Source: a virus. From it: a stretch of DNA of 64,000 bases. The position numbers and the translations under genes were made by a program. Shown one piece after another: positions 7,865-59,438 of the stretch (position 1 is the first letter of the stretch; each line of letters begins with the position of its first letter). The notes beneath the pieces were generated by a model that ran no database searches, was not told where the DNA came from, and saw only the letters and a program-made list of their open reading frames with translations. The stretch lies in the IMG/VR virus record IMGVR_UViG_3300031456_000001, positions 21,080 to 85,079 of that record. The stretch is one strand, 5' to 3'.

Positions 7865-7894
7865 ACAGTAGCAAAGTGTCATGCGGTGTGTCAA
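7865..7894 (-). promoter_or_regulatory. Promoter of the recurrent TTGACA family
   Basis: TTGACA (7889-7894), 18-nt spacer containing a second TGACA, then TACTGT (7865-7870). It drives the genes ending at 7597 and 7251. The -35 sits 2 nt from the stop of the upstream gene. Confidence 0.7.
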
Positions 7895-7895
7895 T

Positions 7896-8408
7896 TCAGG
7901 GCTGGTGGACGGGCATCCAGGCGAACCAGCCGGCCATGATGCCGAAGGCGAGGACGGCGGCGGCGAGCACGAACCCGGCCAGCCCGAACAGGCAGAGGAT
8001 GCCGAGGTAGGCGCGGATCGCCTCCAGGACGTCCATGTGCCGCTGGTGGGCGTGCCGGCGGCGGGCTTCGGCGTCCGCGGCCCGCTGCCGGGCGGCGGCG
8101 ACCTCGGCGAGGGACGGTCCGGCGGTGGGCCGCCAGCCGAACAGTCCGCCGGGGCCGATCCGGCGGATCCGGTTGGTGGCCGCGGAGTCGGCGACCGCCT
8201 CGACCGCGGCGGTGGCCGGGCCGTATCTGCCGGGGGGCTGGACGCGCGGCGCGGGCGCGGTGCGTACCGGCTCCGGCGGCATCGGGGCGTTGCGCAGCGC
8301 GGGGCTGACGAGGACGGTGGGTGCGGCCAGGTCGCCGAGGCCGTCGAGGGCGAGCCGGGTGCGGCCGGCGCCGCGCACCCGGCGGTGTGTCTCGGTCTGA
8401 TGGTTCAT
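7896..8408 (-). CDS. Membrane protein with C-terminal hydrophobic segment, unknown function
   Basis: 170 aa; ATG with GGGAGA 9 nt upstream. The N-terminal 110 residues are charged, with a basic Arg-rich start and an Ala/Arg helix (SLAEVAAARQRAADAEARRR). Residues about 124-165 hold one or two transmembrane segments (YLGILCLFGLAGFVLAAAVL and following). No family recognised. Its stop is followed directly by the recurrent promoter at 7865-7894. Confidence 0.6.
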   Translation of the reverse strand: MNHQTETHRRVRGAGRTRLALDGLGDLAAPTVLVSPALRNAPMPPEPVRTAPAPRVQPPGRYGPATAAVEAVADSAATNRIRRIGPGGLFGWRPTAGPSLAEVAAARQRAADAEARRRHAHQRHMDVLEAIRAYLGILCLFGLAGFVLAAAVLAFGIMAGWFAWMPVHQP

Positions 8409-8548
8409 GTCGGTGGTCTCCCGGGGCGGTGGTGGCTGCTGGGGCACGGGATCGGTTCGGCGATGCATAGTCGGCAGGGCTGTAGGCAGGGGTAGGCGTG
8501 TCGGCAGGGCGGGCGTGTGTGGGTGGGTGTGTCGGGACGGGACGGGTG
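8409..8548 (-). other. C-rich leader, no gene
   Basis: 140 bp in the minus sense rich in C and poor in G, containing CCGACACGCC, a word shared with the 6880-7250 leader. No promoter or hairpin stands out. Confidence 0.35.
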
Positions 8549-9780: not shown

Positions 9781-9781
9781 G

Positions 9782-10144
9782 TCAGCTTGCCGCGGGGGCG
9801 GGGCGGGGATCGGCCTGGGCGCCGGTGGCGGCCGGCATCCACTTCGACTCGACGCCGCCGCAGAAGGGCACGTCCCATTCCGGCACCCGGATCAGGTTGT
9901 TGCCCGCGTCGCGGCTCGTCGTCAGGAACGCGACCTTGCCGATGCAGAGCCGCACCATGTTCGGGTGGCCATCGACGTTGTTGTATGCCTCGATCTTGTC
10001 GGGCTTGACCGCGGGCACGCCCTTCAGGTCGCCGGAGGTGGCGTTGCCCTCGTTGAGGCTGCCGCAGCCGCCGAGCAGGGCGAGGGCGGTCAGGCCGGTG
10101 ACGGTCGCCGCGGCGGCCTTCTTGACGGGGGTCATGGTGCGCAT
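9782..10144 (-). CDS. Predicted lipoprotein
   Basis: 120 aa; ATG with GAGAGGAA upstream. It has a classical lipoprotein signal: basic MRTMTPVKK, hydrophobic AAAATVTGLTALALL, and lipobox LGGC at 24-27, so Cys27 would be lipidated after export. The mature part is small and contains two more Cys (67 and 95) that could pair outside the membrane. Phage lipoproteins are often made by lysogens or early in infection to block superinfection; that role here is inferred only. Confidence 0.7.
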   Translation of the reverse strand: MRTMTPVKKAAAATVTGLTALALLGGCGSLNEGNATSGDLKGVPAVKPDKIEAYNNVDGHPNMVRLCIGKVAFLTTSRDAGNNLIRVPEWDVPFCGGVESKWMPAATGAQADPRPAPAAS

Positions 10145-10170: not shown

Positions 10171-10195
10171 GCACCCCGGCAGTCTGCCGGGGTGC
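10171..10195 (-). terminator. Perfect 11-bp hairpin
   Basis: GCACCCCGGCA and TGCCGGGGTGC pair around a 3-nt loop. It lies between the zinc-ribbon gene and the lipoprotein gene. A TTGACA (10205-10210) overlaps the end of the upstream gene, so the site may combine a terminator with a decayed promoter. Confidence 0.55.
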
Positions 10196-10206
10196 CACAC
10201 GGTGTG

Positions 10207-10506
10207 TCAATTCTCTTCGGCGCATTCGGTGTGTACCCACGTGCCGGTGTGGTTGCCGGTGGTCTTGAACCGCTGCGGCCGGATCGTGTCGCCCGGCTCG
10301 TAGCGTTCCTGGCATTCGGGGCAGCGTCCGCCGTACCGGGCGATGATCGGCGCCCCGTAGCTGGGCTGGTCGCCGTTGCGTCGGGCGTACGGCTCGACCT
10401 CGGCGGTGAGGCCACGCGCCGTGGCGCCGGCAGCCCCGGCGTGCAGGCGGCAGCCGCACTGTTCGATGAGCAGCTCGGTCAGCTCGCAGCGGTCCTGCGC
10501 GGTCAC
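10207..10506 (-). CDS. Hypothetical zinc-ribbon protein
   Basis: 99 aa from a GTG overlapping the upstream stop (GTGA). An early cysteine group (DRCELTELLIEQCGC) precedes a second one, GRCPECQERYEPGD, closed by HTEC near the C-terminus. This resembles the CxxC...HxxC zinc ribbons found in many actinophage proteins, in which residues after the first CxxC follow YxxGDxI. Function unknown; protein or nucleic acid binding is possible. Confidence 0.65.
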   Translation of the reverse strand: MTAQDRCELTELLIEQCGCRLHAGAAGATARGLTAEVEPYARRNGDQPSYGAPIIARYGGRCPECQERYEPGDTIRPQRFKTTGNHTGTWVHTECAEEN

Positions 10507-10794: not shown

Positions 10795-11403
10795 CTACCA
10801 GGGCAGGCCGCGGTGCTTGGCGCAGGTCTCGCCGTAGCCGGCGGCCCGTGAGCGGGCGTTGGTCAGCGGGTGCGGGCCGAACGCGCAGATCCCCAACGTC
10901 CGGCCGAACAGCCCGGCGGCGGCGGCCACGTCCTCCAGGATGTGACTGGCGGCGAAGACCTGGTGCCGGGCGTGCAGCTTCTGCTGGCTGAGGCCGGTGC
11001 CGTTGGAGATGAGCTGGTACAGCCGGCGCGTGCCGTTGCGGAACTCGACGACCTCGAAGAAGGTGATGTCGTTCCCGGCGGCGGTCGGCGTGGTGCGCGG
11101 CAGGGCGTACCGGCCGGCGGGCAGCTTCGCGGCCATCCGGTTCGCCTCGGCGTACAGCTCGCCCAGGTTCGGCGTGGCGTACGTGATCGGCGTCTGCGGC
11201 TTCGGCTGCGCGTGCTGCGCCACGAACGTCTGCGCCCGCTCCCGGGCCGCCTGGCGCTGCGGGGTGCGGGCCGGGGTGCCGGTGCTGCCGCCGGTGATCT
11301 GGCGTAGCACCTGGCCCTGCTCGCGGGCGACCTCGGCCAGGGGGCGCAGGCCGTTGCGCTCACGCCAGGTGCTCAGCGATCCGAGGGTGGCGGACTGGGT
11401 CAT
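10795..11403 (-). CDS. Hypothetical protein with DUF6011-like C-terminal zinc motif
   Basis: 202 aa; ATG with GGAGGT upstream. The middle part (about 95-135) has a beta-rich pattern (DITFFEVVEFRNGTRRLYQL). The C-terminus GICAFGPHPLTNARSRAAGY plus GETCAKHRG resembles the DUF6011 pattern (CxxCGRxLT...S...GxGPxC), but one expected Cys is replaced, so metal binding may be altered. Transcribed from the promoter at 11454-11483 through a leader with a 9-bp hairpin. Confidence 0.6.
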   Translation of the reverse strand: MTQSATLGSLSTWRERNGLRPLAEVAREQGQVLRQITGGSTGTPARTPQRQAARERAQTFVAQHAQPKPQTPITYATPNLGELYAEANRMAAKLPAGRYALPRTTPTAAGNDITFFEVVEFRNGTRRLYQLISNGTGLSQQKLHARHQVFAASHILEDVAAAAGLFGRTLGICAFGPHPLTNARSRAAGYGETCAKHRGLPW

Positions 11404-11453: not shown

Positions 11454-11483
11454 AAGGTAGCAAACTGTCACACGGCGTGTCAA
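11454..11483 (-). promoter_or_regulatory. Promoter of the recurrent TTGACA family
   Basis: TTGACA (11478-11483), 18-nt spacer with the internal GTGACAG, TACCTT (11454-11459). A second TTGACA lies at 11491-11496. Drives the 202-aa gene. Confidence 0.75.
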
Positions 11484-12924: not shown

Positions 12925-13575
12925 TCAGACGGGCACGTCGGCGGCCAGCAGGGCCTCCAGCTCGGTCAGGCTGTACCCGCCGGTCATCGTCGCCTCGGCC
13001 TTCCTGACCATGAGACGGAACTCGTCGGAGACCTCGGCGACCGCCTCGGCGCAGTGCGCGCAGCGCGCCGTCGCGTCCTCGTGCAGGTAGTGCATCCACG
13101 TGTCGGCCCGCACGGTTCGCTCCCGGAAGCCGGCCAGGGCAACTTCCATGACCCGGTCGAAGCGGGCGAAGAAGTCGACGTCGGCACGCCGGGCGGCCTC
13201 GTCGTGGGCGGCGACCTCGGCGGCGGCCACCTCGGCCCGGGCGCGGGGGCCGCGCATCGTCGTGGGGGCGACCGCGTCGGCGACGCTGACCACGGAGCCG
13301 GCGCCCGGTGCGACGTGCTCGACGATCGCCTCCACGTCGGCGGCGTTCAGCGTCGGGTCGATGACCAGCTCGGCGGTGCGGTCGTCGAACACCGGCCACG
13401 GGGTCGTGGAGTGCTGCACGGCGGGCTGCCGGGCGATGCTGACGCCAACGACGATCCCGCCGACGGCGAACGTCGCCAGAAACGCCTGCCAGGCGACGGG
13501 CAGGGCCGCGGTGTAGTCGACCATCACGGCCAGCCAGGACAGGATCACGGCGGGCGTCTGCTGGATGAGCTGCAT
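12925..13575 (-). CDS. Membrane-anchored protein with cytosolic Cys pair
   Basis: 216 aa. Two hydrophobic segments near the N-terminus (about 8-22, and 28-47 with FLATFAVGGIVVGVSIA) anchor it. The rest is soluble and helical: an Ala/Glu-rich stretch about 110-125 and a CAHCAEAVAEV motif near 175. Topology and function are unknown. A diverged copy of the recurrent promoter element lies about 50-80 bp upstream. Confidence 0.6.
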   Translation of the reverse strand: MQLIQQTPAVILSWLAVMVDYTAALPVAWQAFLATFAVGGIVVGVSIARQPAVQHSTTPWPVFDDRTAELVIDPTLNAADVEAIVEHVAPGAGSVVSVADAVAPTTMRGPRARAEVAAAEVAAHDEAARRADVDFFARFDRVMEVALAGFRERTVRADTWMHYLHEDATARCAHCAEAVAEVSDEFRLMVRKAEATMTGGYSLTELEALLAADVPV

Positions 13576-13623: not shown

Positions 13624-13655
13624 GGTGTTCAGGTACGTGTCTCGCAGTGTGTCAC
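13624..13655 (-). promoter_or_regulatory. Diverged copy of the recurrent element
   Basis: In the minus sense GTGACACACTGCGAGACACG, then TGAACA about 18 nt downstream of the first hexamer. Position fits the promoter for the gene starting at 13575; both hexamers deviate from the consensus. Confidence 0.35.
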
Positions 13656-13960
13656 GTGGGGCTACGGGCGGCTGCCTGCCGGAGTTGCCGGCGGCGGGTC
13701 TGGTGGCTGCGGTGCGGGTCGAGAAGGTGCACGAAGCCCTCCCCGGGCGGCGGTCCGGCGAGGGCGTGCCGCACGGCGTCGGGGTGGCCGCGGGCGCGCG
13801 CCCGGCAGACGAACCGGTCGAGGGCGTCGCGGCTGATGCCGAGCTGGGCGGCGATCTCGGCGACGGGAATGCCCTGCTCGGCGCCCCGCCGCCAGATGAT
13901 GAGCCGATCGGCGGTGTCGGGGTCGGGGGTGTAGTCGCTGCCCCGGCGGCCGCGGGTCAC
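13652..13960 (-). CDS. Helix-turn-helix protein (sigma-4/transposase-like HTH)
   Basis: 102 aa; the ATG overlaps the upstream stop (ATGA). An HTH is visible at about 22-56: RRGAEQGIPVAEIAAQL, then GISRDALDRFVCRARARG as turn and recognition helix. The basic C-terminus (RSHQTRRRQLRQ) may contact DNA. It is probably a small regulator or accessory DNA-binding protein. It is read divergently from the DNA-metabolism operon that starts at 14492 and could control it. Confidence 0.65.
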   Translation of the reverse strand: MTRGRRGSDYTPDPDTADRLIIWRRGAEQGIPVAEIAAQLGISRDALDRFVCRARARGHPDAVRHALAGPPPGEGFVHLLDPHRSHQTRRRQLRQAAARSPT

Positions 13961-14343
13961 GGCGCGTCGACCTCCTCACCGCCGTCACCGGGGCTGACCA
14001 CGGTGGTGCGGGCCTGCGGGTCGCGGACCGCCTCGTACCGGGCGATCGCGGCGAGCATCTCCCTGCCGTGCCCGGGATGGATGATGGCCCGCTTCACCTC
14101 GTCGAGGAACCCGGCCAACGTCTGAGCCATCGCCCCTCCCCCCGAATCCGGGTAGTTCGGGAAGACCGCGCTGACGGCGTCGGCCAGGTCGGCCGCCCCG
14201 AAGAGCGTGCCGATCGTCTCGAACATCCGGCGCACCGCGTCCGGGTCGGGCGTGCTCGTCGACCGGCCGGTGTTGCCACTCCAACGCAGCGTGCCGCCCT
14301 GCATCTCGTCGAGCGCCGCCTGAACGTGCCTGCCGTGTTCCAT
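13957..14343 (-). CDS. Hypothetical protein
   Basis: 128 aa; first gene of a minus-strand unit divergent from the 14492 operon. It has a helical middle (FETIGTLFGAADLADAVSAV) and a helix about 75-110 (LAGFLDEVKRAIIHPGHGRE), ending in a disordered acidic tail. No family recognised. Confidence 0.55.
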   Translation of the reverse strand: MEHGRHVQAALDEMQGGTLRWSGNTGRSTSTPDPDAVRRMFETIGTLFGAADLADAVSAVFPNYPDSGGGAMAQTLAGFLDEVKRAIIHPGHGREMLAAIARYEAVRDPQARTTVVSPGDGGEEVDAP

Positions 14344-14491
14344 GCCAGCCTCCGGGGGTCTGGGGGAAGTTGTGTCACACCCAGTTCCTCATACTGTCAC
14401 GCGACTTGTCAAGTATGATGGGTGCCGGACGCTATGCGGACAAGATCATCCGCGGTTGACACGCGGTGTGCCATATTGAGAGGATCTGCAG
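14344..14491. promoter_or_regulatory. Divergent control region with three copies of the TGTCA element
   Basis: 148 bp between the minus-strand unit (13957-14343) and the plus-strand DNA-metabolism operon. TTGACA on minus at 14407-14412 is followed by GCGTGACAGTATGA. TTGACA on plus at 14456-14461 is followed by CGCGGTGTGCCATATTGAG. A further TGTGTCACAC sits at 14371-14380. Neither copy has a good -10 at the usual 18-nt distance, so these may be operator sites or weak, activator-dependent promoters. Confidence 0.55.
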
Positions 14492-15013
14492 ATGAGCACC
14501 ACACACGACCCACCCGCGCATCCCGGGGCGGCCACCATCCCGGCCGCCCTGCTCGCCGTGTTCGACGAGCAGGGCTTCGAGAAGTACCAGCTGCTGCGCG
14601 ACCGGCTCGACGAGGAGCCGATGGAGCGCATCCACCGGATGGTCACCGGCACGTACCGGATCAAGCGCCGCCGCAACGGCGACCCCGTACCCGATCAGAC
14701 CGATCCCACCGGCAACACCCCGACCCCCGACTACATGTCGTTCCGCAAGATCGCCGTCGAGCTGCAGGAGACGGCCGGTGTCGCCATCTCCTACGAGACG
14801 GTGCGCCGCTGGTGGTACCAGGTGTGGCCGGAGGACCGGGGCCGCGGCTTCGAGGACGGCACCCCGGAGGCTGCGGAACGCATTCAGGCCCGGCTCGCCC
14901 GGCTGCACACCGCGCAGGCCGAGGCGTCGGCCCGGCACACCAACGAGGCGGTGCCCCCGGCGGCGTTCCTCGCCCCCGACGACGCGCCGGCCGCCGCACA
15001 CCCGCTCGACTGA
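14492..15013 (+). CDS. Putative DNA-binding protein with HTH-like segment
   Basis: 173 aa; ATG preceded by GAGAGGATC. Residues 85-110 (FRKIAVELQETAGVAISYET, then VRRWW) look like a helix-turn-helix of the type in which the recognition helix follows SYETVRRW. A basic RIKRRRNGD (about 55-63) could add DNA contacts. First gene of the plus-strand operon; it may regulate the divergent region upstream. The C-terminus is Ala-rich. Confidence 0.6.
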   Translation: MSTTHDPPAHPGAATIPAALLAVFDEQGFEKYQLLRDRLDEEPMERIHRMVTGTYRIKRRRNGDPVPDQTDPTGNTPTPDYMSFRKIAVELQETAGVAISYETVRRWWYQVWPEDRGRGFEDGTPEAAERIQARLARLHTAQAEASARHTNEAVPPAAFLAPDDAPAAAHPLD

Positions 15014-15233: not shown

Positions 15234-16459
15234 GCGACGGGCGGGAGCCGTACCAGCGGCGCACCAACGACGACGGCTCCAAGTTCTACGAGCACCCCAC
15301 CCGCACCGAGGAGGTGCCCGGCCCGGACGGGACCAGCACGATCGTCCGGCCGGCGCGCTACGTGTCGGTGACCACGGCGCTCGGCGTCGTCGACAAGCCG
15401 GCGTTGGTGTTCTGGTCGGCGAACCTGGCTGCGCGCCGGGCCATGCAGAACCTGCCCCGGCTCATCGCCGACGTGTTCAAGGACGACTGCGGCCGGGCCG
15501 CCGCCCGCACGGAGCCGCTCGGCTGCGGCACCTGCTCGGCGTGCACCGAGCGGTGGGTGGCGCTGTTCCACCACGGGGAGAAGGAGCGCCGCGCCCGGGA
15601 AGGCTCGGCCACCCACGACATCCTGGAGTGGTGGACGAAGACCGGCGAATGGGTGTACCGGCCGCGGGACTCGTGGGGGGAGTACGCGCCGACGCCGGAG
15701 GAGATCGCGCCGTACATGCGGTCCCTGCAGGCGTTCGTCGCCGATTTCGGGCTGACGCCGGAGTCGTGGCTGATCTGCGAGTGCACCGTCTTCCATCACG
15801 GTCTGAAGTACGGCGGCACTCTCGACGGCGTCGTCGTGATCTTTCCGCGGACGAAGGCGTCGGCCGAGTTCTGCGCCCGGATCGCGCACAGCCTCGACAT
15901 CCCCTGGTCGAAGGTCGTCGCCGAGGGGATCCGGGTGGTCGTCGACTGCAAGAGCCGGGAGGGCGAGAAGGCCGCGATCTACGTCGAGGCGGTGCTGCAG
16001 CTCACCGGGTACCGGTTCGCGGAGACGATGATCCCGGCGAAGGGCAGCCTCATCGAGATGGCGATGCTGGCCACCGACGGCGCCGTGGTGCTGCAGGTCC
16101 GGCCCGACGGCTACACGTTCCGGCCGGTGCTCGCCGACGGCCGGGCGATGGCTGCGTTCCGGGCGGTGCTGGATCTGCACCGCTGGCACAGCGAGTGGGG
16201 TGACTACTCGACGCAGGTGCAGGCGTTCCCGAAGCCGCCGGACTGGACGTGGGAGCCGCCGACCGTACCCGGGGCAGAGCCGGCGAAGAAGGCGGCGGCG
16301 AAGCGCGCGCCGCGCGGTGCGGCGAAGAAGGCCGCGAAGGCCGCCGCCGACGGCGCGACGGCGGGCCGGCAGCCGTCGGCGACGATCGCGAGCATGGCCG
16401 GCAAGATGAGCCAGCCCGGCGCCCGCCACAGCATCGACGACGGTGCCATTCCGTTCTGA
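15230..16459 (+). CDS. Cas4/RecB-like PD-(D/E)XK exonuclease
   Basis: 409 aa from a GTG overlapping the previous stop (GTGA). The RecB-family nuclease motifs are in order: GSATHDILE (126-133, H129), CECT (E184), GGTLDG (D199), VVVDCKS (D239, K241) and an alpha helix with VLQLTGYRFAE (Gln257 and Tyr261). Cysteines at 87, 99, 102, 105 and 183 could form an iron-sulfur or zinc site as in Cas4/AddB nucleases, although their layout is unusual. The C-terminal 80 residues are Lys/Ala-rich. Likely 5'-3' exonuclease for phage recombination or end processing, beside an SSB and DnaQ-like gene. Confidence 0.82.
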   Translation: MSDGREPYQRRTNDDGSKFYEHPTRTEEVPGPDGTSTIVRPARYVSVTTALGVVDKPALVFWSANLAARRAMQNLPRLIADVFKDDCGRAAARTEPLGCGTCSACTERWVALFHHGEKERRAREGSATHDILEWWTKTGEWVYRPRDSWGEYAPTPEEIAPYMRSLQAFVADFGLTPESWLICECTVFHHGLKYGGTLDGVVVIFPRTKASAEFCARIAHSLDIPWSKVVAEGIRVVVDCKSREGEKAAIYVEAVLQLTGYRFAETMIPAKGSLIEMAMLATDGAVVLQVRPDGYTFRPVLADGRAMAAFRAVLDLHRWHSEWGDYSTQVQAFPKPPDWTWEPPTVPGAEPAKKAAAKRAPRGAAKKAAKAAADGATAGRQPSATIASMAGKMSQPGARHSIDDGAIPF

Positions 16460-16485
16460 CACGCCCCATGACATTCTGATACCCT
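16456..16485 (+). promoter_or_regulatory. Promoter of the recurrent family, plus strand
   Basis: CTGACA (16456-16461), 18-nt spacer with ATGACATT, TACCCT (16480-16485). It starts inside the stop codon of the nuclease gene and reads into the gp3-like gene. Confidence 0.65.
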
Positions 16486-19505: not shown

Positions 19506-19859
19506 ATGAGCGGACCGAAGCCGGTCAAGCTGCTCGCCAAACTGCCGAAAGAGTCCAGGCTCAACGGCCTGGAGTCGGTACACGACCAGCTGGCCAGGTT
19601 CGGCACGGCGACGATCGTCATGACCGTGTCGACGAAGCTGGTCGAGCGGCACGCGGGCGACGTCCTGCAGCCGGTCATGCAGATCGAGCACGTCGAGGGC
19701 CTGCCGGCCGGCGCGCTCGCCAAGGCGGGCGAGCAGCTGATGACGCAGGCCCGCATCGCCCGCCTCGGCGGCGAGGAGGAGGCCCTGCCGCCGGAAGTCG
19801 TCGACTTCGGCCAGCCGGATGACGACAACGACGATCCTGAGCCATACCAGGTTGATTGA
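19506..19859 (+). CDS. Hypothetical protein upstream of SSB
   Basis: 117 aa; ATG with AGGAG upstream. Likely alpha/beta: ATIVMTVSTKLVERHAGDVL followed by MQIEHVEGLP, then a helix about 80-100. The C-terminus is acidic (DDDNDDPEP). The segment TxxxxxGxxxPxxxIxHVEGL is seen in actinophage proteins encoded near ssDNA-binding proteins, so a DNA-replication accessory role is possible. Its stop codon lies within the TTGACA of the next promoter-like site. Confidence 0.55.
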   Translation: MSGPKPVKLLAKLPKESRLNGLESVHDQLARFGTATIVMTVSTKLVERHAGDVLQPVMQIEHVEGLPAGALAKAGEQLMTQARIARLGGEEEALPPEVVDFGQPDDDNDDPEPYQVD

Positions 19860-19884
19860 CACGCTGCGTGACATCTGATGTGAT
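19856..19884 (+). promoter_or_regulatory. Promoter-like copy of the recurrent element
   Basis: TTGACA (19856-19861), CGCTGCGTGACATCTGA, then TGTGAT (19879-19884) at 17 nt. The -10 is weaker than in other copies. Reads into the SSB gene. Confidence 0.5.
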
Positions 19885-21012: not shown

Positions 21013-22191
21013 ATGACGACCGAGCTGACCACGGGGGCGCTCGTCGGGCAGGTGCGCGCCTCCGAATCCCCGGCCCGGCCGCTCAAGATCTTCATGTGGG
21101 CGGCGAGCATGGTCGACGGGACCTGGATATACCGCCTCGACATGCCGGCTCGGGAGCTGCGCCGGCTCGGCCACGAGGTGCAGATCTCCAGCACGATGAG
21201 CGCCTGGGCCCGCGACGAGGCCGACATCATCGTCGGGCAGCGGGTCTTCCAGGACCTGCCGTCGCGGATGTGGCAGCTGCTCTGCGAGGAGCGGCGGGCG
21301 TCCGGCCGTGGCGGCATGGTGTTCGAACTGGACGACGACCTGATCAACATCGACCCGAAGACCAACCCGCTCGCCCTGCGGTTCCGGCACCCACGGGTCC
21401 AGGAAAACCTGAAGATCAACCTGCGTGCCGCCAACGGGGTCACCGTCTCCACGGAGCCGCTGGCCGCGGTGGTCAGGAAGGTGCGCCGCGGCGATCCGGC
21501 GGAGGTGCACGTCGTGCCCAACGCGGTGCGCGCCGAGACGTTCGCCGTCACGAAGACCGCGGACCGCACCTACCTGACCATGTACGGCTGGCAGGGTTCC
21601 AGCACGCACGGTGCGGACTGGCGGGTGGCCCGTGACGCGGTGGCGTTGGTGCTCGCCGAGGATGCGATCCGGCTGCGGTTCCTCGGCACCGCCCACCTGG
21701 AGGGCCTGCCCCTGACCGCTGTGCAGCGGGGCCGGAGCCGGGTCGACGCCAAGCCGTGGACCACCGACATCGACGAGCACTACCGGCGGGTAGCCGAGTT
21801 CGACGTCAGCCTGGCCCCGCTGGCCAACACGCCGTTCAACCGGAGCAAGAGCGCCCTGCGAGCGCAGGAGAGCCTTGCTCTCGGTGTGCCGGTCGTCGCC
21901 TCCGACGTGCCCTCCTACCGCGGCTGGGTCACCGACGGCGTCACCGGCTTCATCGTGCCCGCCTCGACCGGTAAGTGGGTGCGGGCGATGCGGGCGCTGC
22001 AGGACCCGGCGTTGCGCGCCGAGATGGGCGCTGCGGGCCGGGAGGCCGCGAAAGCCTGGTCGATCGAAGTTCTCGTCCATCGCTGGCTCGACGTCTACTA
22101 CTCGCTGCTGCCCGACTTGTCAGCCCGGCTCAACACGCAACAGACCGACGCGCCTGACCATCCTGTATCCGGGCCGACGGCCCATGCCTGA
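21013..22191 (+). CDS. Glycosyltransferase family 4-like protein
   Basis: 392 aa; ATG with GGAGGAC upstream. GT-B type features: an N-terminal half in which the protein takes YRLDMPARELRRLGHEVQIS, and a C-terminal half with DEHYRRVAEFDVSLAPLANT, then SALRAQESLALGVPVVASDV (about 291-310), followed by VTDGVTGFIV. These match the donor-binding E(S/A)xAxGxPVVAS motif. First gene of the sugar island. It may decorate virion proteins, DNA or host surface; substrate unknown. Confidence 0.82.
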   Translation: MTTELTTGALVGQVRASESPARPLKIFMWAASMVDGTWIYRLDMPARELRRLGHEVQISSTMSAWARDEADIIVGQRVFQDLPSRMWQLLCEERRASGRGGMVFELDDDLINIDPKTNPLALRFRHPRVQENLKINLRAANGVTVSTEPLAAVVRKVRRGDPAEVHVVPNAVRAETFAVTKTADRTYLTMYGWQGSSTHGADWRVARDAVALVLAEDAIRLRFLGTAHLEGLPLTAVQRGRSRVDAKPWTTDIDEHYRRVAEFDVSLAPLANTPFNRSKSALRAQESLALGVPVVASDVPSYRGWVTDGVTGFIVPASTGKWVRAMRALQDPALRAEMGAAGREAAKAWSIEVLVHRWLDVYYSLLPDLSARLNTQQTDAPDHPVSGPTAHA

Positions 22192-22384
22192 ACGAATATC
22201 GCCACAGCTGTCCCGACCGCCCCCCGTACGACGGCCCACCGCTGGCCGCCGCCACGCCCTCCCCGACCTCTGGCCGACCTTCCTGCACGCGACCATCCCA
22301 CTCGGCTTGCCGACTGACCCGCCCGTGGCTGAGCTGTCCGACAGGCCAGTCCCCCACCATCCACCCCCCACCCCGAGGAGTCCG
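22192..22384 (+). other. C-rich leader before second glycosyltransferase
   Basis: 193 bp with no gene. C-rich and G-poor in the transcript sense, with CGGCTTGCCGACTGACC near 22303-22319, similar to the repeated CGACTTRCC words. No promoter seen. Confidence 0.4.
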
Positions 22385-23116
22385 ATGATCGACATTCCGC
22401 GCCTGGCGGTGGTCAGCACGCACAACCGCCCGGCCGAGCTGGCCCGGCTGCTCACCGCGATCACACCGCAGTGCCACAAGGTGTTCGTGGTCGACAACGC
22501 CAGTGACCCGCCGGTGGTGTTCCCGTCGGGCCGGCTGTACGGCCCGGGGATGCCGGACCCGGAGGTGCCGGGCACCTGTCTGATCACGCGGGTCGAGGTG
22601 ATCCGGGACGAGGAGCAGCCGCCGAACCTGAGCAGGCTGTGGAACGTCGGTATCGACGCGGCCCGCGACTACGTGCGCGGCGGCGACTACATCGGCCACG
22701 ACGTGGCGATCCTCAACGACGACGCGGTGCCGCCGCCGGGCTGGTGGGATGCCGTGTCCGGGGCGATGCGCGGCGCCGGCGCGATGGCCGGGTCGTCCAG
22801 CCCGTTCGACACCGCACCGGGCGTGGTTCAGCACTGGGGCTCGGGGATACCGATGTCGGTGGCGACCCGGCTGACCGGTTGGGCGATGCTGCTGCGCGGC
22901 GAGTGGGAGGGCGCCCGGTTCGACGAGCGGCTGCGGTGGTGGTACGGCGAGGATGACCTTTCGTTCCGCGCCCGGCTGGCGGGGGGCATCGTGCACGTCG
23001 GCGGATTCCCGGTGCCGAACACCGGCGCGAACACCAGCACCGTCGGCGTGCTGGCCGAGCAGGCCGGGCGGGACCGGGCGATGTTCGTGCACATCCACGG
23101 ACGGCAGCCGTGGTGA
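22385..23116 (+). CDS. Glycosyltransferase family 2-like protein
   Basis: 243 aa; ATG with GAGGAG upstream. GT-A fold features: LAVVSTHNRPAELARLLTAI at the N-terminus, VFVVDNASDPP, an NLSRLWNVGID segment, then VAILNDDAVPPPGWWD (the DxD-like metal site) and WWYGEDDLSFRARLAG (the ED motif). It would transfer a sugar from a nucleotide donor. The stop overlaps the next GTG. Confidence 0.82.
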   Translation: MIDIPRLAVVSTHNRPAELARLLTAITPQCHKVFVVDNASDPPVVFPSGRLYGPGMPDPEVPGTCLITRVEVIRDEEQPPNLSRLWNVGIDAARDYVRGGDYIGHDVAILNDDAVPPPGWWDAVSGAMRGAGAMAGSSSPFDTAPGVVQHWGSGIPMSVATRLTGWAMLLRGEWEGARFDERLRWWYGEDDLSFRARLAGGIVHVGGFPVPNTGANTSTVGVLAEQAGRDRAMFVHIHGRQPW

Positions 23117-24134: not shown

Positions 24135-24138
24135 AAGC

Positions 24139-30828: not shown

Positions 30829-30858
30829 AGAATAGCAAACTGTCACACGACGTGTCAA
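30829..30858 (-). promoter_or_regulatory. Promoter of the recurrent TTGACA family
   Basis: TTGACA (30853-30858), 18-nt spacer with GTGACAGTTTGC, TATTCT (30829-30834). It abuts the stop codon of the upstream gene at 30859. Confidence 0.8.
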
Positions 30859-31315: not shown

Positions 31316-31345
31316 AACCTAGCAGACTGTCACGTCACGTGTCAA
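31316..31345 (-). promoter_or_regulatory. Promoter of the recurrent TTGACA family
   Basis: TTGACA (31340-31345), 18-nt spacer with CGTGACAGTCTGC, TAGGTT (31316-31321). It overlaps the end of the upstream gene (stop within 31335-31337). Confidence 0.78.
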
Positions 31346-33932: not shown

Positions 33933-33962
33933 AGACTAGCAAACTGTCACGCGACGTGTCAA
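33933..33962 (-). promoter_or_regulatory. Promoter of the recurrent TTGACA family
   Basis: TTGACA (33957-33962), 18-nt spacer with GCGTGACAGTTTGC, TAGTCT (33933-33938). Leader to the ATG at 33904 carries GAGGAGGCCCCAG. Confidence 0.82.
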
Positions 33963-44540: not shown

Positions 44541-45116
44541 GTCGATGATCCTGAACGGGCTCACGGTGTCGCTCACGTAGTGGCTGGTGAATGTCGCCGG
44601 GACCAGGGTGAGCGAGTCCTTCTTGTAGGCCAGCTCGATGTTTTCCGTCGAGATCGCCTTACGCAGGATGATCCGGCGCCGCTTCGACACGCCCGCCGCG
44701 CTGGCCGGCGCGTAGCCGTCGAACAGCACCGCGAGGTAGACCGGCTGCAGCTCCGTGCCGTCGTACACCGGTTCGTAGTAGGAGTAGCCGGCGCCGGTGG
44801 TGATCGTGCCCGAGTTGAGGCCCAGCGTGAAGTTCTGCAGGGTCGCCTCAGCCAGGTTGGCCTGCACGCTGAGCTGCCGCTCGGTCATCTTCGTGCCGAC
44901 CCGGTCGGCGAGCTGGTCGACGCGCATCTCACTGAACGTCTGGTCGATGGTGACGGTGATGCCGTCGGAGGTGAAGCCGGTGTACGTCCACGCCGACGCC
45001 TGTGGCGCCGAGTTGACCGCGGCAAGGGCGGGCTCAAATGCTGCAGTAGCCGAGAAAAGGCCGGTATACATCCGACCCGCCCCCTGGATGACCTGGTAAG
45101 CCGCGCCGTTGGCCAT
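44532..45116 (-). CDS. Major tail tube protein
   Basis: 194 aa; ATG with GAAAGGGG upstream. The order (just before the frameshifted chaperone and tape measure) and sequence (YQVIQGAGRMYTGLFSATAA, WTYTGFTSDGITVTIDQTFS, LNSGTITTGAGYSYYEPVYD) fit a siphovirus tail tube. Beta-rich, no Cys. Many copies would form the tail. The leader has a CTGCGC/GCGCAG hairpin (45145-45160). Confidence 0.85.
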   Translation of the reverse strand: MANGAAYQVIQGAGRMYTGLFSATAAFEPALAAVNSAPQASAWTYTGFTSDGITVTIDQTFSEMRVDQLADRVGTKMTERQLSVQANLAEATLQNFTLGLNSGTITTGAGYSYYEPVYDGTELQPVYLAVLFDGYAPASAAGVSKRRRIILRKAISTENIELAYKKDSLTLVPATFTSHYVSDTVSPFRIIDET

Positions 45117-45144
45117 TAGTGTCCCCTTTCTCGGGGTGATTTAT

Positions 45145-45160
45145 CTGCGCCAATGCGCAG
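45145..45160 (-). other. Hairpin in leader of major tail gene
   Basis: CTGCGC and GCGCAG pair around CAAT, flanked by A/T-rich AATTCTTTT on the plus side. It lies 29 nt upstream of the ATG. It may protect or expose the start region of the abundant transcript. Confidence 0.45.
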
Positions 45161-45177
45161 CAATTCTTTTGACGCCA

Positions 45178-45681
45178 TCACGGCGTCACCGTCCAGGTGG
45201 TGCCGAGGCCGTGCCAGACGATCTCCACGTCGAAGCCCACGTGCGCGTAGTCGGCCGGATCGGCGGTGCGCCGGGCCGGGTCGGTGAGCGCCCGGAAGCC
45301 GGTGACGCGCACGTCCGGGTACCCGGTGGGCAGGCTGACCACGGCGTGCGTGTCGTGGGTCTCGGTGTCGAGGGTGGCGGCGATGATCAGCTCGGCGAGG
45401 TCGAAGGCTGCCGGCCACGGCGGGCGCTTGCTCTGGCCCTTCGAGGTGTAGATGTCGACGCTGGCCACGGAGGTGCGCAGCGGCACGTAGGGGCTGATCG
45501 TGCCGTCGATGCCGGACACCTGCACGAAGCCGGTGGTACCCCAGGTGAGCTTCCCGGTGTTCTCGTCGGGGCCCTGCAGGACCATGCCGACGGCGACGTC
45601 GTAGGCGGCGACCATGGCGCGCAGATATGCCGCGGCGACGATCTCGGGGTTGGCGCGTTTCGGCACCACGGGCGTGGTCAC
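45178..45681 (-). CDS. Tail terminator-type protein
   Basis: 167 aa from a GTG overlapping the upstream stop (GTGA). ANPEIVAAAYLRAMVAAYDV at the start and HDTHAVVSLPTGYPDVRVTG, then FDVEIVWHGLGTTWTVTP, resemble the tail-terminator (gpU/gp17-like) proteins that cap the tail. Position between neck proteins and the tail tube supports this. Beta-rich with a helical start. Confidence 0.62.
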   Translation of the reverse strand: MTTPVVPKRANPEIVAAAYLRAMVAAYDVAVGMVLQGPDENTGKLTWGTTGFVQVSGIDGTISPYVPLRTSVASVDIYTSKGQSKRPPWPAAFDLAELIIAATLDTETHDTHAVVSLPTGYPDVRVTGFRALTDPARRTADPADYAHVGFDVEIVWHGLGTTWTVTP

Positions 45682-46061: not shown

Positions 46062-46130
46062 CCTCACCACCCCCTCTGCGGGTTGCGGCCTACCCTGCCG
46101 CCGGTCTGCCCGGCGTCACACCGTATGTCA

Positions 46131-54748: not shown

Positions 54749-55126
54749 TCAGTCGCCGATCGAGTACCAGTCGTTGCGATCGCAGCCGGGCGCCGAACAG
54801 GTGATGCGGTCGCCGTACGCCTCCTGCGTGGTGACCACCGTGTCGTAGCCCTTGCACTTGGGGCAGCGCGACACCGCGTACAGGTCAGGCTGACCACCAT
54901 GGTTTGGTGTGCCGTCGGCATGCCGCGCAACGGTGAACGCATCCTCGCCGAGTTCCCACGGGCCGGGCCGGTACGCCGGGTCGGTGATGCGGTGGTCCCA
55001 GGCGGCCTTCACGGTGACGATCGGCTTGCGGCACGTGCTGCACAGGTGACCGGCATCCACGTCGGCGAGAACGGCCAGAACGACCTCGCCGTCGCGGTGC
55101 CAGATAGTGGCAGTGTCGATGGGCAT
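54749..55126 (-). CDS. Zinc-finger hypothetical protein
   Basis: 125 aa; ATG in the shared leader GAGGAGGCCCCAGATG. Three Cys pairs: LCSTCRKP (29-36), SRCPKCKGYD (86-95) and ITCSAPGCDRND. A rubredoxin- or ribbon-like zinc protein. Its promoter overlaps the stop of the frameshift extension at 55181. Function unknown. Confidence 0.65.
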   Translation of the reverse strand: MPIDTATIWHRDGEVVLAVLADVDAGHLCSTCRKPIVTVKAAWDHRITDPAYRPGPWELGEDAFTVARHADGTPNHGGQPDLYAVSRCPKCKGYDTVVTTQEAYGDRITCSAPGCDRNDWYSIGD

Positions 55127-55154
55127 CTGGGGCCTCCTCGTTAGTGGAGACCCC

Positions 55155-55184
55155 AGGCTAGCAAACTGTCACGCGACGTGTCAA
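55155..55184 (-). promoter_or_regulatory. Promoter of the recurrent TTGACA family
   Basis: TTGACA (55179-55184), 18-nt spacer with GCGTGACAGTTTGC, TAGCCT (55155-55160). The leader is nearly identical to that at 33904-33962. It overlaps the stop codon of the frameshift extension. Confidence 0.82.
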
Positions 55185-55597
55185 CTTCCGGGGTTGACGA
55201 GGTCGGGGTGGGCCATGTTGGCCTTGCGACTTCCGGTGTCGCCCTCGATGGCCTTGGAGTCGAGGTAGCGCCGCCGCAGCGCCTCCAAGAGGCGTTTGAT
55301 GGTCTGCGGCTTCGACGCGCCGGCCTCGACGGTGACCTTGTTGTCCCGGGCGACGGCCCGCAGCGCGGGCGCGCTGTAGCCCTTGAGGATGTTCTCGGCG
55401 GCGAAGTCGGACGGGGCGTTGCGCAGGCTGTAGGCCAGGTCCGTCTCGCCTTCGATGCGGGGGCGGAGCCGGGCGCGGTCGGCGTCGGTGGCGCCGACGG
55501 GAATGGGCGTCGGGGTGGGCGCCCGCAGGGCGGCGGGCGCAGCCGCGCGGACGGCCGGAGCCGCCGTCTCGGTGCGCCCGCCCTGCGGGCTTACGCT
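55181..55597 (-). CDS. -1 frameshift extension of the giant protein (138 residues)
   Basis: Frame entered by a -1 slip on G GGA AAA at 55597-55603; no start codon with a ribosome site lies in it. It begins SVSPQGGRTETAAPAVRAA, then a Pro/Ala linker. A SAP-like two-helix part follows: AENILKGYSAPALRAVARDN, then ASKPQTIKRLLEALRRRY. It is coded like a gene and ends at the TGA in the next promoter. Annotation as an extension rather than a separate gene is inference. Confidence 0.6.
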   Translation of the reverse strand, partial: SVSPQGGRTETAAPAVRAAAPAALRAPTPTPIPVGATDADRARLRPRIEGETDLAYSLRNAPSDFAAENILKGYSAPALRAVARDNKVTVEAGASKPQTIKRLLEALRRRYLDSKAIEGDTGSRKANMAHPDLVNPGS

Positions 55598-55603
55598 TTT
55601 CCC
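55576..55603 (-). promoter_or_regulatory. Candidate -1 frameshift signal 2 (GGGAAAA plus hairpin)
   Basis: Heptamer G GGA AAA (55597-55603) in the frame of the 1270-aa ORF, 6-nt spacer GCGTAA, then hairpin GCCCGC-AGG-GCGGGC (55576-55590). Spacing and hairpin are the same as at signal 1. G GGA AAG of phage lambda is a close relative of this heptamer. Confidence 0.65.
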
Positions 55604-58600
55604 AGGCTGGCCAGCCTGGCGACCGCGGCGACCGCGGCGGTGGCGCGGGCCGCGCGCTGCGGCCGCCCCTCCAACCTCCTGAGGCCGTCGAAGGTCCGTA
55701 GGCGCTGCTCGGCGGTGAACTTGGCCCAATCCTCGGCAGTCACCCGCTCGGCGCCGTTGAGTAGCCCGAACGGGCTGGAGTCGGTGCCGCGGGACGCGGC
55801 GATGAGGTCCACCCCGGCGCGGCTGACGCCGAGCCTGTCGGCCGTGTGGCGTTCGGCGGTGTTGTGGATGCCCTTGCGGATCTCGTCGAGGGGGGTGCGG
55901 GTCGGTGCGAGCATGCCGAGGTGCGCGGCGACCTTGCGCAGTTCGGGTGCATTCATGTCGGCGGCGAGCCGGTCGGCCTCGTCGGGGGTGACGGTGCGCA
56001 GCTTCGCCACGAACTCTTCCGGGGTGGCCTTCGGTGCCGCGCTGTGCACCTGCGGTCCGGCGGCTTGCTCGGCGCCGACCTTGCGCAGGATCTTCTCGTT
56101 AGGTCGGGTGGCGTGCATGACGCCCCGGCCGCCGGTCGGCGTGGTGTAGGCGACCTTGACGTTTTTGACGCCGACCTCCGTGACGATGCCCCGCCGATAG
56201 CGGCTGAACGTGTCGACCATGACCACGTCGCCGGCTTTGACCGGCTGGTCGGGTGCGGCGGCGAAGCCGAGCTGCCGGGCGTCGTCGTCGCCCCCGGCGA
56301 CGGCCATCAGCTTCAGGGCCTCCTGGTAGGTGACGTCCCGGCCGAGCTTGGAGGTTTCGTGCCGGGCGGCGATCTCGATCTTGGCGGTGGCGCCGGTGCG
56401 GCCGCCGCCTTTCGGGGTGGGTGCGGTGTCGGCGACGTGCCGGAGACCTTCGCCGGTGATGTAGCTGCCGTTGACCCGCTCGCCGTCCTGGGTGGCCTCG
56501 GCCAGGTAGTTGCCCCGGATCAGCTCGCCGGTGATGTGGCCGGACTCGTAGGGGTTTTTGGTGCCCAGCTCCTTGGCGATGGCGTTGGCGTCCCTGGACC
56601 ATTTGATGGCGGCGTTGACCTCGGTCTTGTCGGGGTCATCGACGGTGTATCCGGGCTGGGGACCGAGGCGTTCGTGGATGACGGCGGCGGTGCGGAGCAG
56701 GCTGTCACGGCCGTGGGACAGCTCGGAGCGGGGCCGGGTGTCGCCGCCGGGCTTCTTCGTCACGTTCGCCTCCGTGGCGGAGGTCGGTGCGACTCGGTCG
56801 GCCTTGATGTGGGTGGTGACCGTGCTGGCACCCTTCCCGGCGGTCCCGTCGGCGCGCAGCTTGGTGCCGCGCACCATGACGTTGCCGTTGCGGTCCGGTT
56901 CGCCCAGCACTTCGACGTCGGCCAGCTGGTAGGGCTGCTTGTACGTCAGGTCGGCCCCGGCCGGGACCGTGATGGTCGAGCCGTTCTGGATGCGGTTCAC
57001 GTTCGCCTCCGTGGTGGGTGCGTTGCTCACCCCACCAGTATGCGAACTGTCACGCCGTGTGTCAAGTTGGCCGCGGCGTTCCGTCTCCAGCTTCGCCAGG
57101 CTCGCCTCGTGGCGCGCCCGGATGCCCGGCGTCAGGTCCGGCTTCGCGAGCGCGTCGCGGTGCTGCCGGATCTCCCGGTCGAGGGCCTCGCGGTCCAGTT
57201 CGGCGACCGTCTTGTTGCGGCCCTCGTAGCGATGGAACATGCGTCCGCTGATGCGGCGCGCATCGAGGCTGCCGCCGGTGCTGGCCGCCGTCTCGCCGTT
57301 GGTGAGGACGTCGGCGGCGTGGGCGATGGTGTCGGCCCAGCCCTCCAGGCGCGTCTCGCCGCTACCGTTCTCCGAGTGCACGGCATAGACCTGCTCGCCG
57401 TCGCGTACGGTCGAGGTGACCCACCCGGCGGTCTGGCCGTTGCGGTCGGTGACCTTGAACTCTCCGAACGGGTTGTCGGGGGTGTGCCGGATGCGGCCCA
57501 CCTTGAGGTCGGACCGCTGCCCGGACGGCCCGGCCATGATCTTGCGGTACAGGTCGGCGTGGTCCATCCGGCCGTCGGCGATGGCCCGGATCTTGGCGCC
57601 ATTGTCCTTCGGGTCCTTCGACTCCTGCAGGTCACTGACACGCTTCTCGGTGGCTGCGGTGCGGGCCTTGGCCAGGTTGGCGGTGCGCTTCTCCGCGGTG
57701 GCCGCACTGACCACCGGTGGGGCAGCGCCACTCCCCCGCTGCCTGCTGTTGATCCGGGCTCGCATGGCGTCCCAGCCGACGCCGTTGATCGTGAAGTCGG
57801 GGTTGCGGGTCTCGCCCCGGTCGACAGCGGCGAGCGCATCCGCGTACCGCCCGTCCTTCATTGCCAGGCGCGCCTGCTCGGCCACGTCGGCAGAGGCAGC
57901 CTTGCGGGCGGCCTCCTTCGCCCTACCGCCGTCTTTCGGCCCGTCGAGTACCCGGGGGTTGGCGTCGATGTGGGCGCGCACCGCGTCTTGGACGGTACTG
58001 GTGCCGTACTTCTTCTCCAGGGCCTGCAGGTGCCCTTCCGTGACGTACCGGGCGGTGTCGTCACGGCTGAGGTTGAGTGCGCCGCCGTGGTTGGCTGCGG
58101 CGTAGTCCTCGGTGGCCGCCTGGATGCGCGCCCGGTCGAGGGGCGCGATGGCGTCGCCCTTGCCCGGGGCGGCGGCGAGCGCGCCGCGCTTCGCGGCCGG
58201 GTTGATCCGGGTGCGGACGGGAGCGGCGGGCGCCTTCGCAGCCTCCGGCTTGACGACGTCGTGCGGCTGGATCCGGGTCTCGATCGTCCGGCCGTTCTGA
58301 TCGACCCGGCTCACGTGCAGCGTCTCACCCGGTCCGGCGTCGCGGGTCACCGTGTACTCGCGCGGCTTCGCGCCGGGCGGCAGGGCGAAGGTGGACAGCA
58401 CCTTGTCGCCCTTCTTGTGGCCGACCTCCCCGGCGAACACCTCCTCGTGCAGGGCGTGCATGTCGGCGGCGATCTTGGCCAGACCGGACGGCCCGGATGC
58501 CGGCGCGGGCACCTTGGCGGGCTTGGCCGACTCGCCGCGCAGCCGGGCGGCGGCCCGCTCCGCGAGCGCGTTGCCGTCGCGACGCCCCAAGATGGTCAGC

Positions 58601-59403
58601 TCGGTCGCCTGCTCTTCGCTGATGCCGCCGCCGGAGCGCACCTCGAAGTCGTAGTTCTTTGCGCCGGGGTCTCCGTCACCGGCCGCTGCGCGGACCGCGT
58701 TCCAGACGGCGACCTTCTCGGCCACCTTCGCATCGGCCTTGTCGGCACCCTCCGTGGTGGCCATGCTCGGCAGACTGTCGTGCAGCTTCTGCACTTCGCT
58801 GCGGGTGCGCGGGGTAAGGTCGGTGCGGGCCAGCTCGCCGCGCAGTACCTCGCCACCACGGCGATTGTTCTCAGCGGCAGCCCGCACCCGGGCGGCATTT
58901 TTCGCATCGAAGATGATCGACTCGGCAAGGGCGCGCTGGCCGTCCGGCAGTTTCTTAACAGCGGTGTCGCCGGGGATGCCGTTGGCCTTCTTCAACGCCT
59001 TGACGTGGGCTTTCGCAGCCTCTTCGACATCGATCCGACCCAGCGCCTGCGCCGCCGCGCTGGCCCGCTTCCGGTGGGCGAGGAAGTCGTCTTTCAGGGC
59101 CTGGTTCTCGTCCCGGAACACCTGGACCTTGCGGGCGGCGGCATCGATACGCCACGTCTCCCAGGCGGGAGTGTTCTCGAACTCTTTGAGCGCCTGCCGC
59201 CATTCCTTCTTGCGTTCGACGTCGAGCAGGTTGGTACCGCCGTAGCCGTTGATCTCGTAGTCGACACCCTGGGCGAACTGGGTTTTACGGTCGCCGCTCC
59301 AGCGGTTCGGGTCGCTCATGTCGACGCCGATAACGGCGCGGCCTTCGCTGGCCTGCGTAGTGCGCTTCGTCTCGACCGGTATCCGGCCGCGCATGGGGGG
59401 CAT
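55591..59403 (-). CDS. Giant structural-type protein (1270 codons) with internal fused gene borders
   Basis: ATG at 59403 lacks a clear ribosome site, but the frame also continues upstream to the frameshift site at 59463. The first half is long helices (KTQFAQGVDYEINGYGGTNL, VQVFRDENQALKDDFLAHRK). Around 57000-57065 the frame reads through a full copy of the recurrent promoter, a Shine-Dalgarno and GTG. A second GGAGGCGAAC-GTG lies at 56763. The C-terminal third has a KOW/SH3-like stretch (VKAGDVVMVDTFSRYRRGIV) and SAP-like helices (ELRKVAAHLGML). Likely a virion-associated protein ejected with DNA. Confidence 0.6.
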   Translation of the reverse strand: MPPMRGRIPVETKRTTQASEGRAVIGVDMSDPNRWSGDRKTQFAQGVDYEINGYGGTNLLDVERKKEWRQALKEFENTPAWETWRIDAAARKVQVFRDENQALKDDFLAHRKRASAAAQALGRIDVEEAAKAHVKALKKANGIPGDTAVKKLPDGQRALAESIIFDAKNAARVRAAAENNRRGGEVLRGELARTDLTPRTRSEVQKLHDSLPSMATTEGADKADAKVAEKVAVWNAVRAAAGDGDPGAKNYDFEVRSGGGISEEQATELTILGRRDGNALAERAAARLRGESAKPAKVPAPASGPSGLAKIAADMHALHEEVFAGEVGHKKGDKVLSTFALPPGAKPREYTVTRDAGPGETLHVSRVDQNGRTIETRIQPHDVVKPEAAKAPAAPVRTRINPAAKRGALAAAPGKGDAIAPLDRARIQAATEDYAAANHGGALNLSRDDTARYVTEGHLQALEKKYGTSTVQDAVRAHIDANPRVLDGPKDGGRAKEAARKAASADVAEQARLAMKDGRYADALAAVDRGETRNPDFTINGVGWDAMRARINSRQRGSGAAPPVVSAATAEKRTANLAKARTAATEKRVSDLQESKDPKDNGAKIRAIADGRMDHADLYRKIMAGPSGQRSDLKVGRIRHTPDNPFGEFKVTDRNGQTAGWVTSTVRDGEQVYAVHSENGSGETRLEGWADTIAHAADVLTNGETAASTGGSLDARRISGRMFHRYEGRNKTVAELDREALDREIRQHRDALAKPDLTPGIRARHEASLAKLETERRGQLDTRRDSSHTGGVSNAPTTEANVNRIQNGSTITVPAGADLTYKQPYQLADVEVLGEPDRNGNVMVRGTKLRADGTAGKGASTVTTHIKADRVAPTSATEANVTKKPGGDTRPRSELSHGRDSLLRTAAVIHERLGPQPGYTVDDPDKTEVNAAIKWSRDANAIAKELGTKNPYESGHITGELIRGNYLAEATQDGERVNGSYITGEGLRHVADTAPTPKGGGRTGATAKIEIAARHETSKLGRDVTYQEALKLMAVAGGDDDARQLGFAAAPDQPVKAGDVVMVDTFSRYRRGIVTEVGVKNVKVAYTTPTGGRGVMHATRPNEKILRKVGAEQAAGPQVHSAAPKATPEEFVAKLRTVTPDEADRLAADMNAPELRKVAAHLGMLAPTRTPLDEIRKGIHNTAERHTADRLGVSRAGVDLIAASRGTDSSPFGLLNGAERVTAEDWAKFTAEQRLRTFDGLRRLEGRPQRAARATAAVAAVARLASLGKA
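56760..56777 (-). repeat. 18-bp direct repeat carrying SD and GTG, copy 2
   Basis: TCACGTTCGCCTCCGTGG on the plus strand; minus reads CCACGGAGGCGAACGTGA. Identical copy at 56997-57014. GGAGG is 5 nt before GTG in both. Inside the 1270-codon frame. Confidence 0.75.
56997..57014 (-). repeat. 18-bp direct repeat carrying SD and GTG, copy 1
   Basis: Same 18 bp as 56760-56777. Lies 21 nt after the -10 of the embedded promoter (57035-57065), exactly as a real start would. Confidence 0.75.
57035..57065 (-). promoter_or_regulatory. Recurrent promoter embedded in the giant ORF
   Basis: TTGACA (57060-57065), 19-nt spacer with GCGTGACAGTTCGC, TACTGG (57035-57040). It is translated in frame as QLDTRRDSSHTGG. 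It probably marks an older gene start, at GTG 57000. Confidence 0.65.
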
Positions 59404-59432
59404 GCCACCAGCCTGACCGCTGTCACGCGACG

Positions 59433-59438
59433 TGTCAA
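59433..59438 (-). promoter_or_regulatory. TTGACA of a diverged recurrent element at a gene border
   Basis: TTGACACGTCGCGTGACAG in the minus sense keeps both TGACA words, but the -10 (AGGCTG at 59409-59414) does not match TANNNT. It lies between the 441-aa and 1270-aa frames and is read through by the predicted frameshift product. Confidence 0.45.

What the first reader, a model, noticed from the sequence alone, without database searches (positions are those of the whole stretch)
7865..59438. A phage-wide family of about 15 promoter/operator elements with paired TGACA words
A shared element TTGACA-CGYNGYG-TGACAGTTTGC-TANNNT occurs at 7865, 11454, 30829, 31316, 33933, 55155 and 57035 (minus) and 16456 (plus). 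The -10 is 18 nt from the -35 in all but the 57035 copy (19 nt). Diverged copies keep the TGACA words but lose the -10 (10205, 13624, 14407, 14456, 19856, 46126, 59433, 686). The second TGACA, 12 nt after the first, lies in the spacer where sigma factors need no sequence. This implies a regulator binding there, much like the stoperator/repressor systems of mycobacteriophages, but with a different site. One factor could thus switch many small units on both strands.
Basis: partly seen in the sequence, partly recalled or inferred. Interest (0 to 1): 0.8.

Follow-up and report, generated by a model that had tools for sequence, protein, structure and literature searches.

The report
Phage-wide palindromic operators embedded in promoters
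This soil actinobacterial virus carries about 22 copies of one 17-letter mirror-image DNA site, most of them built into its promoters, so a single virus protein probably switches many small gene groups off together; related viruses use a different mirror-image site in the same places, as expected if switch and switch-protein evolve together.

Summary
The core TTGACAC-N5-GTGACA has 8 window matches against 0.02 expected. The whole 85,079-bp record has 21 dyad sites with at most one arm mismatch against 0.4 expected. Position 686 is not a copy; the other 15 listed positions stand.

The reading needs correcting. The two 'TGACA words' are not a direct repeat but the arms of a 17-bp inverted repeat, TGWCACRY-N-RYGTGWCA. 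Seven of its eight mirrored position pairs are symmetric; the eighth is the A that the -35 box TTGACA fixes. So this is a dimer-type operator over the -35 and spacer, not an asymmetric stoperator. The operator slides relative to the promoter, which fits a repressor.

A relative (G004) has another palindrome, TTGACAACTNAGTTGTCA, at several of the same genomic positions. G008/G009 and G011 have further ones.

In kind this matches dispersed-operator phages (phiC31, L5), but with unrelated proteins and sites, and no integrase was found. Binding, repression and lifestyle are inferred, not shown.

The parts
7877..7893 (-). operator dyad, left arm = -35 (TTGACA, 18 nt, TACTGT); upstream of 7597-7833
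10193..10209 (-). operator dyad, weak -10 CAGACT; upstream of 9782-10144
11466..11482 (-). operator dyad with promoter (TACCTT); upstream of 10795-11403. The G004 orthologue of this gene has a different palindrome at the same place
13638..13654 (-). diverged operator, 63 bp upstream of 12925-13575
14395..14411 (-). operator in the divergent control region, lying upstream of a + strand TATGAT
14457..14473 (+). operator 18 bp before the start codon of the candidate regulator gene
14492..15013 (+). best regulator candidate, 173-aa HTH protein; positional orthologues in G004, G008, G009, G011
   Evidence: weak Pfam HTH_32; leave-one-out HMM and synteny; helices 84-95 and 101-111
13652..13960 (-). 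HTH_23 protein on the other side of the control region; orthologues in G004 and G011; second candidate
5988..6215 (-). XRE (HTH_31) protein next to the primase gene; BldD DNA-binding domain is its nearest solved structure; third candidate
16457..16473 (+). operator with promoter (CTGACA, 18 nt, TACCCT); upstream of the Gp3-like gene at 16517
19857..19873 (+). operator with promoter (17 nt, TGTGAT); leader of the SSB-like gene; same place in G001 and G005
30841..30857 (-). operator with promoter (TATTCT); same place in G001
31328..31344 (-). operator with promoter (TAGGTT)
33945..33961 (-). operator with promoter (TAGTCT); same place in G001 and G005
46114..46130 (-). diverged operator at a gene junction that also has a site in G001 and G005
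55167..55183 (-). operator with promoter (TAGCCT); upstream of 54749-55126
57048..57064 (-). operator and promoter inside the open frame 55591-59403, ahead of an internal RBS and GTG; counterparts in G001, G005 and G004
59421..59437 (-). operator with weak -10 (CAGGCT, 17 nt), 27 bp upstream of 55591-59394

Best explanation
The element is the operator of one phage-encoded dimeric repressor, laid over host-type sigma-70 promoters. Each 17-bp inverted repeat (half-site TGWCACR, arm centres 11 bp apart, about one helical turn) covers the -35 box and the first half of the spacer at most sites, so a bound dimer would keep RNA polymerase off the promoter. About 22 such sites over 85 kb would put many short transcription units, early and late, and apparently a tRNA array, under one switch. 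The regulator is most likely the HTH protein encoded at 14492-15013. It sits at a divergent control region that holds two operators, one of them 18 bp before its own start codon, so it would repress itself. Shown here: the dyad, its statistics, its promoter positions, its conservation, and its replacement by other palindromes in relatives. Inferred: binding by a dimer, repression rather than activation, and the identity of the regulator.
For: Dyad symmetry at 7 of 8 mirrored pairs over 42 sites, including inner R/Y positions that were not used to select sites. 14 exact and 21 near copies against 0 and 0.4 expected. Every TTGAC[ATC]-N16-19-TANNNT promoter within 120 bp of a called start carries a palindrome: 7 of 7 in G000, 5 of 5 in G001, 4 of 4 in G005, and 3 of 3 in G004 with its own version. 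The operator is not tied to one promoter position: in two sites before the window the second arm is the -35 (GTGACA-17-TAGGCT and GTGACA-17-TATCCT), and at -6894 the dyad lies just after a TAGGGT -10. G004 has a different perfect palindrome, at places that include the promoter of the orthologue of 10795-11403 and the divergent control region. The 14492-15013 protein has syntenic orthologues in G004, G008, G009 and G011; leave-one-out profile E-values are 1e-5 to 6e-8 for four of them and 0.005 for the window protein itself.
Against: No binding data. The candidate's HTH family matches are below curated cut-offs, its model is low-confidence (pLDDT 64) and no fold matched. Two other HTH proteins are also conserved in G004. 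No integrase or ParA was found, so a lysogeny role is unsupported. The A/T position breaks perfect symmetry.
Confidence: 0.6

Rival explanations
1. A host transcription factor reads the sites and ties phage transcription to host physiology, as CtrA does in Alphaproteobacteria phages. BldD is the obvious actinobacterial candidate: its box TNAC(N)5GTNA has the same arm spacing.
For: The TCAC-N5-GTGA arm pair fits TNAC(N)5GTNA (PMC4151990). The phage XRE protein's nearest solved structure is the BldD DNA-binding domain. Phages do use host regulators (PMC9437464).
Against: The strict BldD box occurs 6 times in 85 kb, about the 5 that base composition predicts, because most left arms read ACAC. Close relatives have other palindromes at the same positions, so a single conserved host factor does not fit.
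Confidence: 0.12
2. The dimeric regulator is another phage protein: the HTH_23 protein (13652-13960) or the XRE protein (5988-6215), with 14492-15013 being its cro-like partner.
For: HTH_23 and 14492-15013 flank the control region in G000, G004 and G011, like the divergent cI/cro-type pairs described in PMC4557955. XRE proteins commonly bind dyads of this spacing (general knowledge).
Against: No operator stands directly before the XRE gene. The HTH_23 type has a second copy elsewhere in G004 (3792-4019).
Confidence: 0.3
3. L5-type stoperators: an asymmetric site bound by a monomer that also stops elongation.
For: Many dispersed sites, nearly all pointing along transcription, some without a good -10.
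Against: The site is a dyad. Orientation follows from the -35, which one arm supplies. No homologue of the L5-like R4 repressor gp29 was found in G000 or G001.
Confidence: 0.07
4. Promoter cassettes spread by copying, with no regulator; the spacer similarity is shared descent.
For: Several copies share the extended -10 and the leader TGGGGTCTCCACCA...AGGAGG.
Against: The dyad is kept where the -10 and leader are not, and at other promoter positions. G004 keeps the -10 and leader but has a different palindrome.
Confidence: 0.06

Closest known systems
phiC31 repressor system
   Same: A Streptomyces phage with many dispersed repressor sites (PMC4557955). My de novo dyad scan of phiC31 recovered a family of about 16 palindromes with CCTACT/ACTCAC arms, which I take to be its conserved inverted repeats.
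   Different: Different palindrome; no phiC31 repressor homologue in G000 or G001. phiC31 has an annotated integrase; none was found here.
L5-type (Cluster A) and R4 repressor/stoperator systems
   Same: 20 or more dispersed sites in promoters and short intergenic spaces of actinophages (PMC9283540, PMC10276819).
   Different: Those sites are asymmetric 13-mers bound by a monomer; these are 17-bp dyads. No homologue of the R4 repressor was found.
Mycobacteriophage BPs gp33
   Same: Palindromic operator between -35 and -10, a handful of dispersed sites, divergent control region (PMC4557955).
   Different: 12-bp palindromic half-sites at variable spacing; integration-dependent. Here one 17-bp dyad per site and no integrase found.
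CtrA sites in Alphaproteobacteria phages
   Same: Regulator sites concentrated at phage promoters (PMC9437464).
   Different: The regulator there is a host protein; here operators differ between close relatives, which points to a phage protein.

Membership tests
Dispersed palindromic operators (phiC31 kind) | many copies of one inverted repeat, mostly intergenic, genome-wide | tested here: met
Dispersed palindromic operators (phiC31 kind) | sites bound by a phage-encoded repressor | not testable with these tools
   needs binding assays
Dispersed palindromic operators (phiC31 kind) | repressor homologous to phiC31 c | tested here: not met
   no tblastn hit in G000 or G001 at E 1 or better
L5 stoperators | asymmetric 13-bp site | tested here: not met
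   17-bp dyad
L5 stoperators | L5 gp71-like repressor | tested here: not met
   R4 gp29, annotated as L5 gp71-like, finds nothing in G000 or G001; L5 gp71 itself not run
L5 stoperators | blocks elongation at sites without promoters | not testable with these tools
   none
BldD box (host factor) | TNAC(N)5GTNA enriched at the sites | tested here: not met
   6 in 85 kb, near composition expectation
Temperate-phage immunity system | integrase or ParA-type partition gene | tested here: not met
   PF00589, PF07508, PF00239 and PF13614 all negative in G000; the record may be slightly incomplete
Sigma-70 promoters | TTGACA, 16-19 nt, TANNNT near a start codon | tested here: met

The most novel reading that the evidence does not exclude
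An uncultured phage family without detected integrase or ParA genes keeps a genome-wide repressor regulon of about 20 operators. Related phages hold operators at the same genomic positions but have swapped the whole set to a new palindrome, together with a fast-changing small HTH regulator of a previously undescribed family. The regulon would then serve timing within a lytic cycle or superinfection control rather than classical integrated lysogeny.
Probability: 0.3. Interest if true: 0.7.

Novelty: new variant of a known kind. Interest (0 to 1): 0.52.

Why it matters
It gives a natural series of related phages whose operators differ in sequence but sit at shared genomic positions, so the question of how a phage changes a repressor's specificity at 20 sites at once becomes directly testable. 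It also supplies tight-looking regulated promoters for high-GC actinobacteria and a candidate new repressor family.

Tried and rejected
Direct-repeat or asymmetric-site reading: rejected on the symmetry counts. BldD: arm spacing fits but the strict box is not enriched. Homology to the phiC31, R4, mu1/6 and VWB regulators: none. Gp3-like gene at 16517 as evidence for a serine integrase: dropped, because mu1/6 and VWB carry homologues beside annotated site-specific or tyrosine integrases. Host identification by capsid search of 84,980 genomes: nothing. Candidate-regulator relatives in isolated phages and plasmids: none. Fold search of the candidate: no match. Dispersed palindromes in the most distant relatives (G012-G019): no clear set found. 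686 as a site: rejected.

Full report
What was checked. The window is bases 21,080-85,079 of an 85,079-base virus record of 70% G+C. The first 21 kb were added as loci L010 and L011; negative coordinates below are window coordinates in that stretch. Gene calls are my own codon-usage calls, not a published annotation.

The observation. All eight strong copies are present, and 15 of the 16 listed positions are real sites; 686 is not. The pattern gives 8 window hits against 0.02 expected. Written as TGWCAC-N5-GTGWCA the whole record has 14 exact copies and 21 with at most one mismatch, against 0 and 0.4 in simulated genomes. Most lie 20-65 bp upstream of a called start.

What the element is. Over 42 sites from G000, G001 and G005, mirrored positions agree by 81-100% at seven of eight distances from the centre; the exception is the A/T position three bases into each arm. 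The arms were used to select sites, but the inner purine/pyrimidine positions were not, and they are symmetric too. At the exceptional position the left arm must read A to make TTGACA. The right arm prefers GTGACA, that is half-site TGTCAC, but tolerates other bases. So the 'second TGACA' is the right half of a dyad. The TTTGC that follows supplies the TG of an extended -10 (TG-N-TANNNT).

Why an operator. Every consensus-like promoter near a called start in G000, G001 and G005 carries the dyad: 7 of 7, 5 of 5 and 4 of 4. The dyad is not fixed relative to the promoter. At -2160 and -3159 the right arm is the -35 (GTGACA, 17 nt, TAGGCT or TATCCT). At -6894 the dyad follows a TAGGGT -10. A sequence that moves between -35, spacer and the start region, in promoters that otherwise look strong, is best explained by steric repression. 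That step is inference.

Relatives. G001 (64.6 kb) is colinear with G000 but circularly permuted, and lacks the block -7431 to 15013. It carries the same dyad, as does G005. Shared positions include the SSB leader, the junction at 46114, the leader of 32708-33904, and the set around 55167, 57048 and 59421. G004 (major capsid 74% identical) carries TTGACAACTNAGTTGTCA instead. One exact copy precedes the orthologue of 10795-11403, whose G000 promoter has the site at 11466. Others lie in the divergent control region and before k96, the counterpart of the internal site at 57048. A 59-locus family was found with the capsid alignment. G008 and G009 use TTGACACCGGGYGTGTCA. G011 uses GTAAGC-N3-GCTTAC, which overlaps the -10. 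A change of operator sequence with retention of position is what co-evolution with a phage regulator predicts.

The regulator. The divergent region between 13957-14343 (-) and 14492-15013 (+) holds operators at 14395 and 14457. The 14492 gene has positional orthologues next to the exonuclease gene in G004, G008, G009 and G011. They share the motif LG.DP.[DE].I..R and V[ST]HE..R[RK]W. In leave-one-out profile searches of six-frame translations the left-out protein was the best new hit each time (E 5.8e-8, 1.2e-5, 4.2e-6; 0.0048 for the window protein itself). In G004 the operator at 18435 lies about 20 bp before a probable GTG start of the orthologue, as in G000. Pfam sees a weak HTH_32. The AlphaFold model is low-confidence overall but shows a helix-turn-helix at 84-111 and a long C-terminal helix; no solved fold matches. 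The HTH_23 protein on the other side of the region is also conserved, so the two may form a cI/cro-like pair and either could be the operator's partner. I put about 0.45 on 14492-15013, 0.2 on 13652-13960, 0.1 on 5988-6215 and 0.12 on a host factor.

Lifestyle. No tyrosine or serine integrase and no ParA was found in G000 or in the other records with dispersed operators, while several distant relatives without such operators do have integrases. An anti-repressor-type (BRO-N/Ant) protein is encoded at -1796 to -1119. I therefore do not claim lysogenic immunity.

Comparison. In kind this is a dispersed-operator system, as in phiC31 (dispersed sites, PMC4557955; palindromes recovered by my scan) and L5/R4 (asymmetric stoperators, PMC9283540, PMC10276819). 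It fails the tested L5 features and has no phiC31 repressor homologue. It works like phiC31's system; membership by protein descent is not met.

Limits. All evidence is sequence-based; host unknown; the record is not proven complete; the G004 operator set is smaller and more varied than that of G000; statements on repression and autoregulation are inferred from position.

Noticed in passing
33904-33944 and 55126-55166 (-); also G001 18335, 39695, G004 227, G005 4595, 27077: Conserved leader TGGGGTCTCCACCAACGAGGAGGCCCCAG folds into a hairpin that encloses the GGAGG ribosome site (-20 kcal/mol, z -4.7). Possible translational control shared by phages with different operators.
   Followed up: partly
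L010:7150-7740 (just downstream of a TROVE/Ro60-like gene, L010:5503-7161): Sequence that looks like a circularly permuted tRNA: a T-arm and CTCCCGC acceptor strand directly precede GCGGGAG plus a D-arm. An operator/promoter (-13380) reads into it.
   Followed up: partly
L010:8047-9347; G001 L014:15909-17906: tRNA arrays with several unreadable anticodons, downstream of the operator/promoter at -11142 and its G001 counterpart.
   Followed up: no
55591-59403 (-); G001 39730-45261: Very long open frames that run through operator, promoter and an internal ribosome site without a stop, so an internal start may give a second protein from the same frame.
   Followed up: partly
742-2265 (-): Fusion of a ParB-like N-terminal domain to a DUF5131 radical-SAM-like domain.
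   Followed up: no
21013-28419 (+): Block of genes that by eye look like glycosyltransferases and sugar-nucleotide epimerases, conserved in G001 and G004; function of so many in a phage unclear. No family search was run on them.
   Followed up: no
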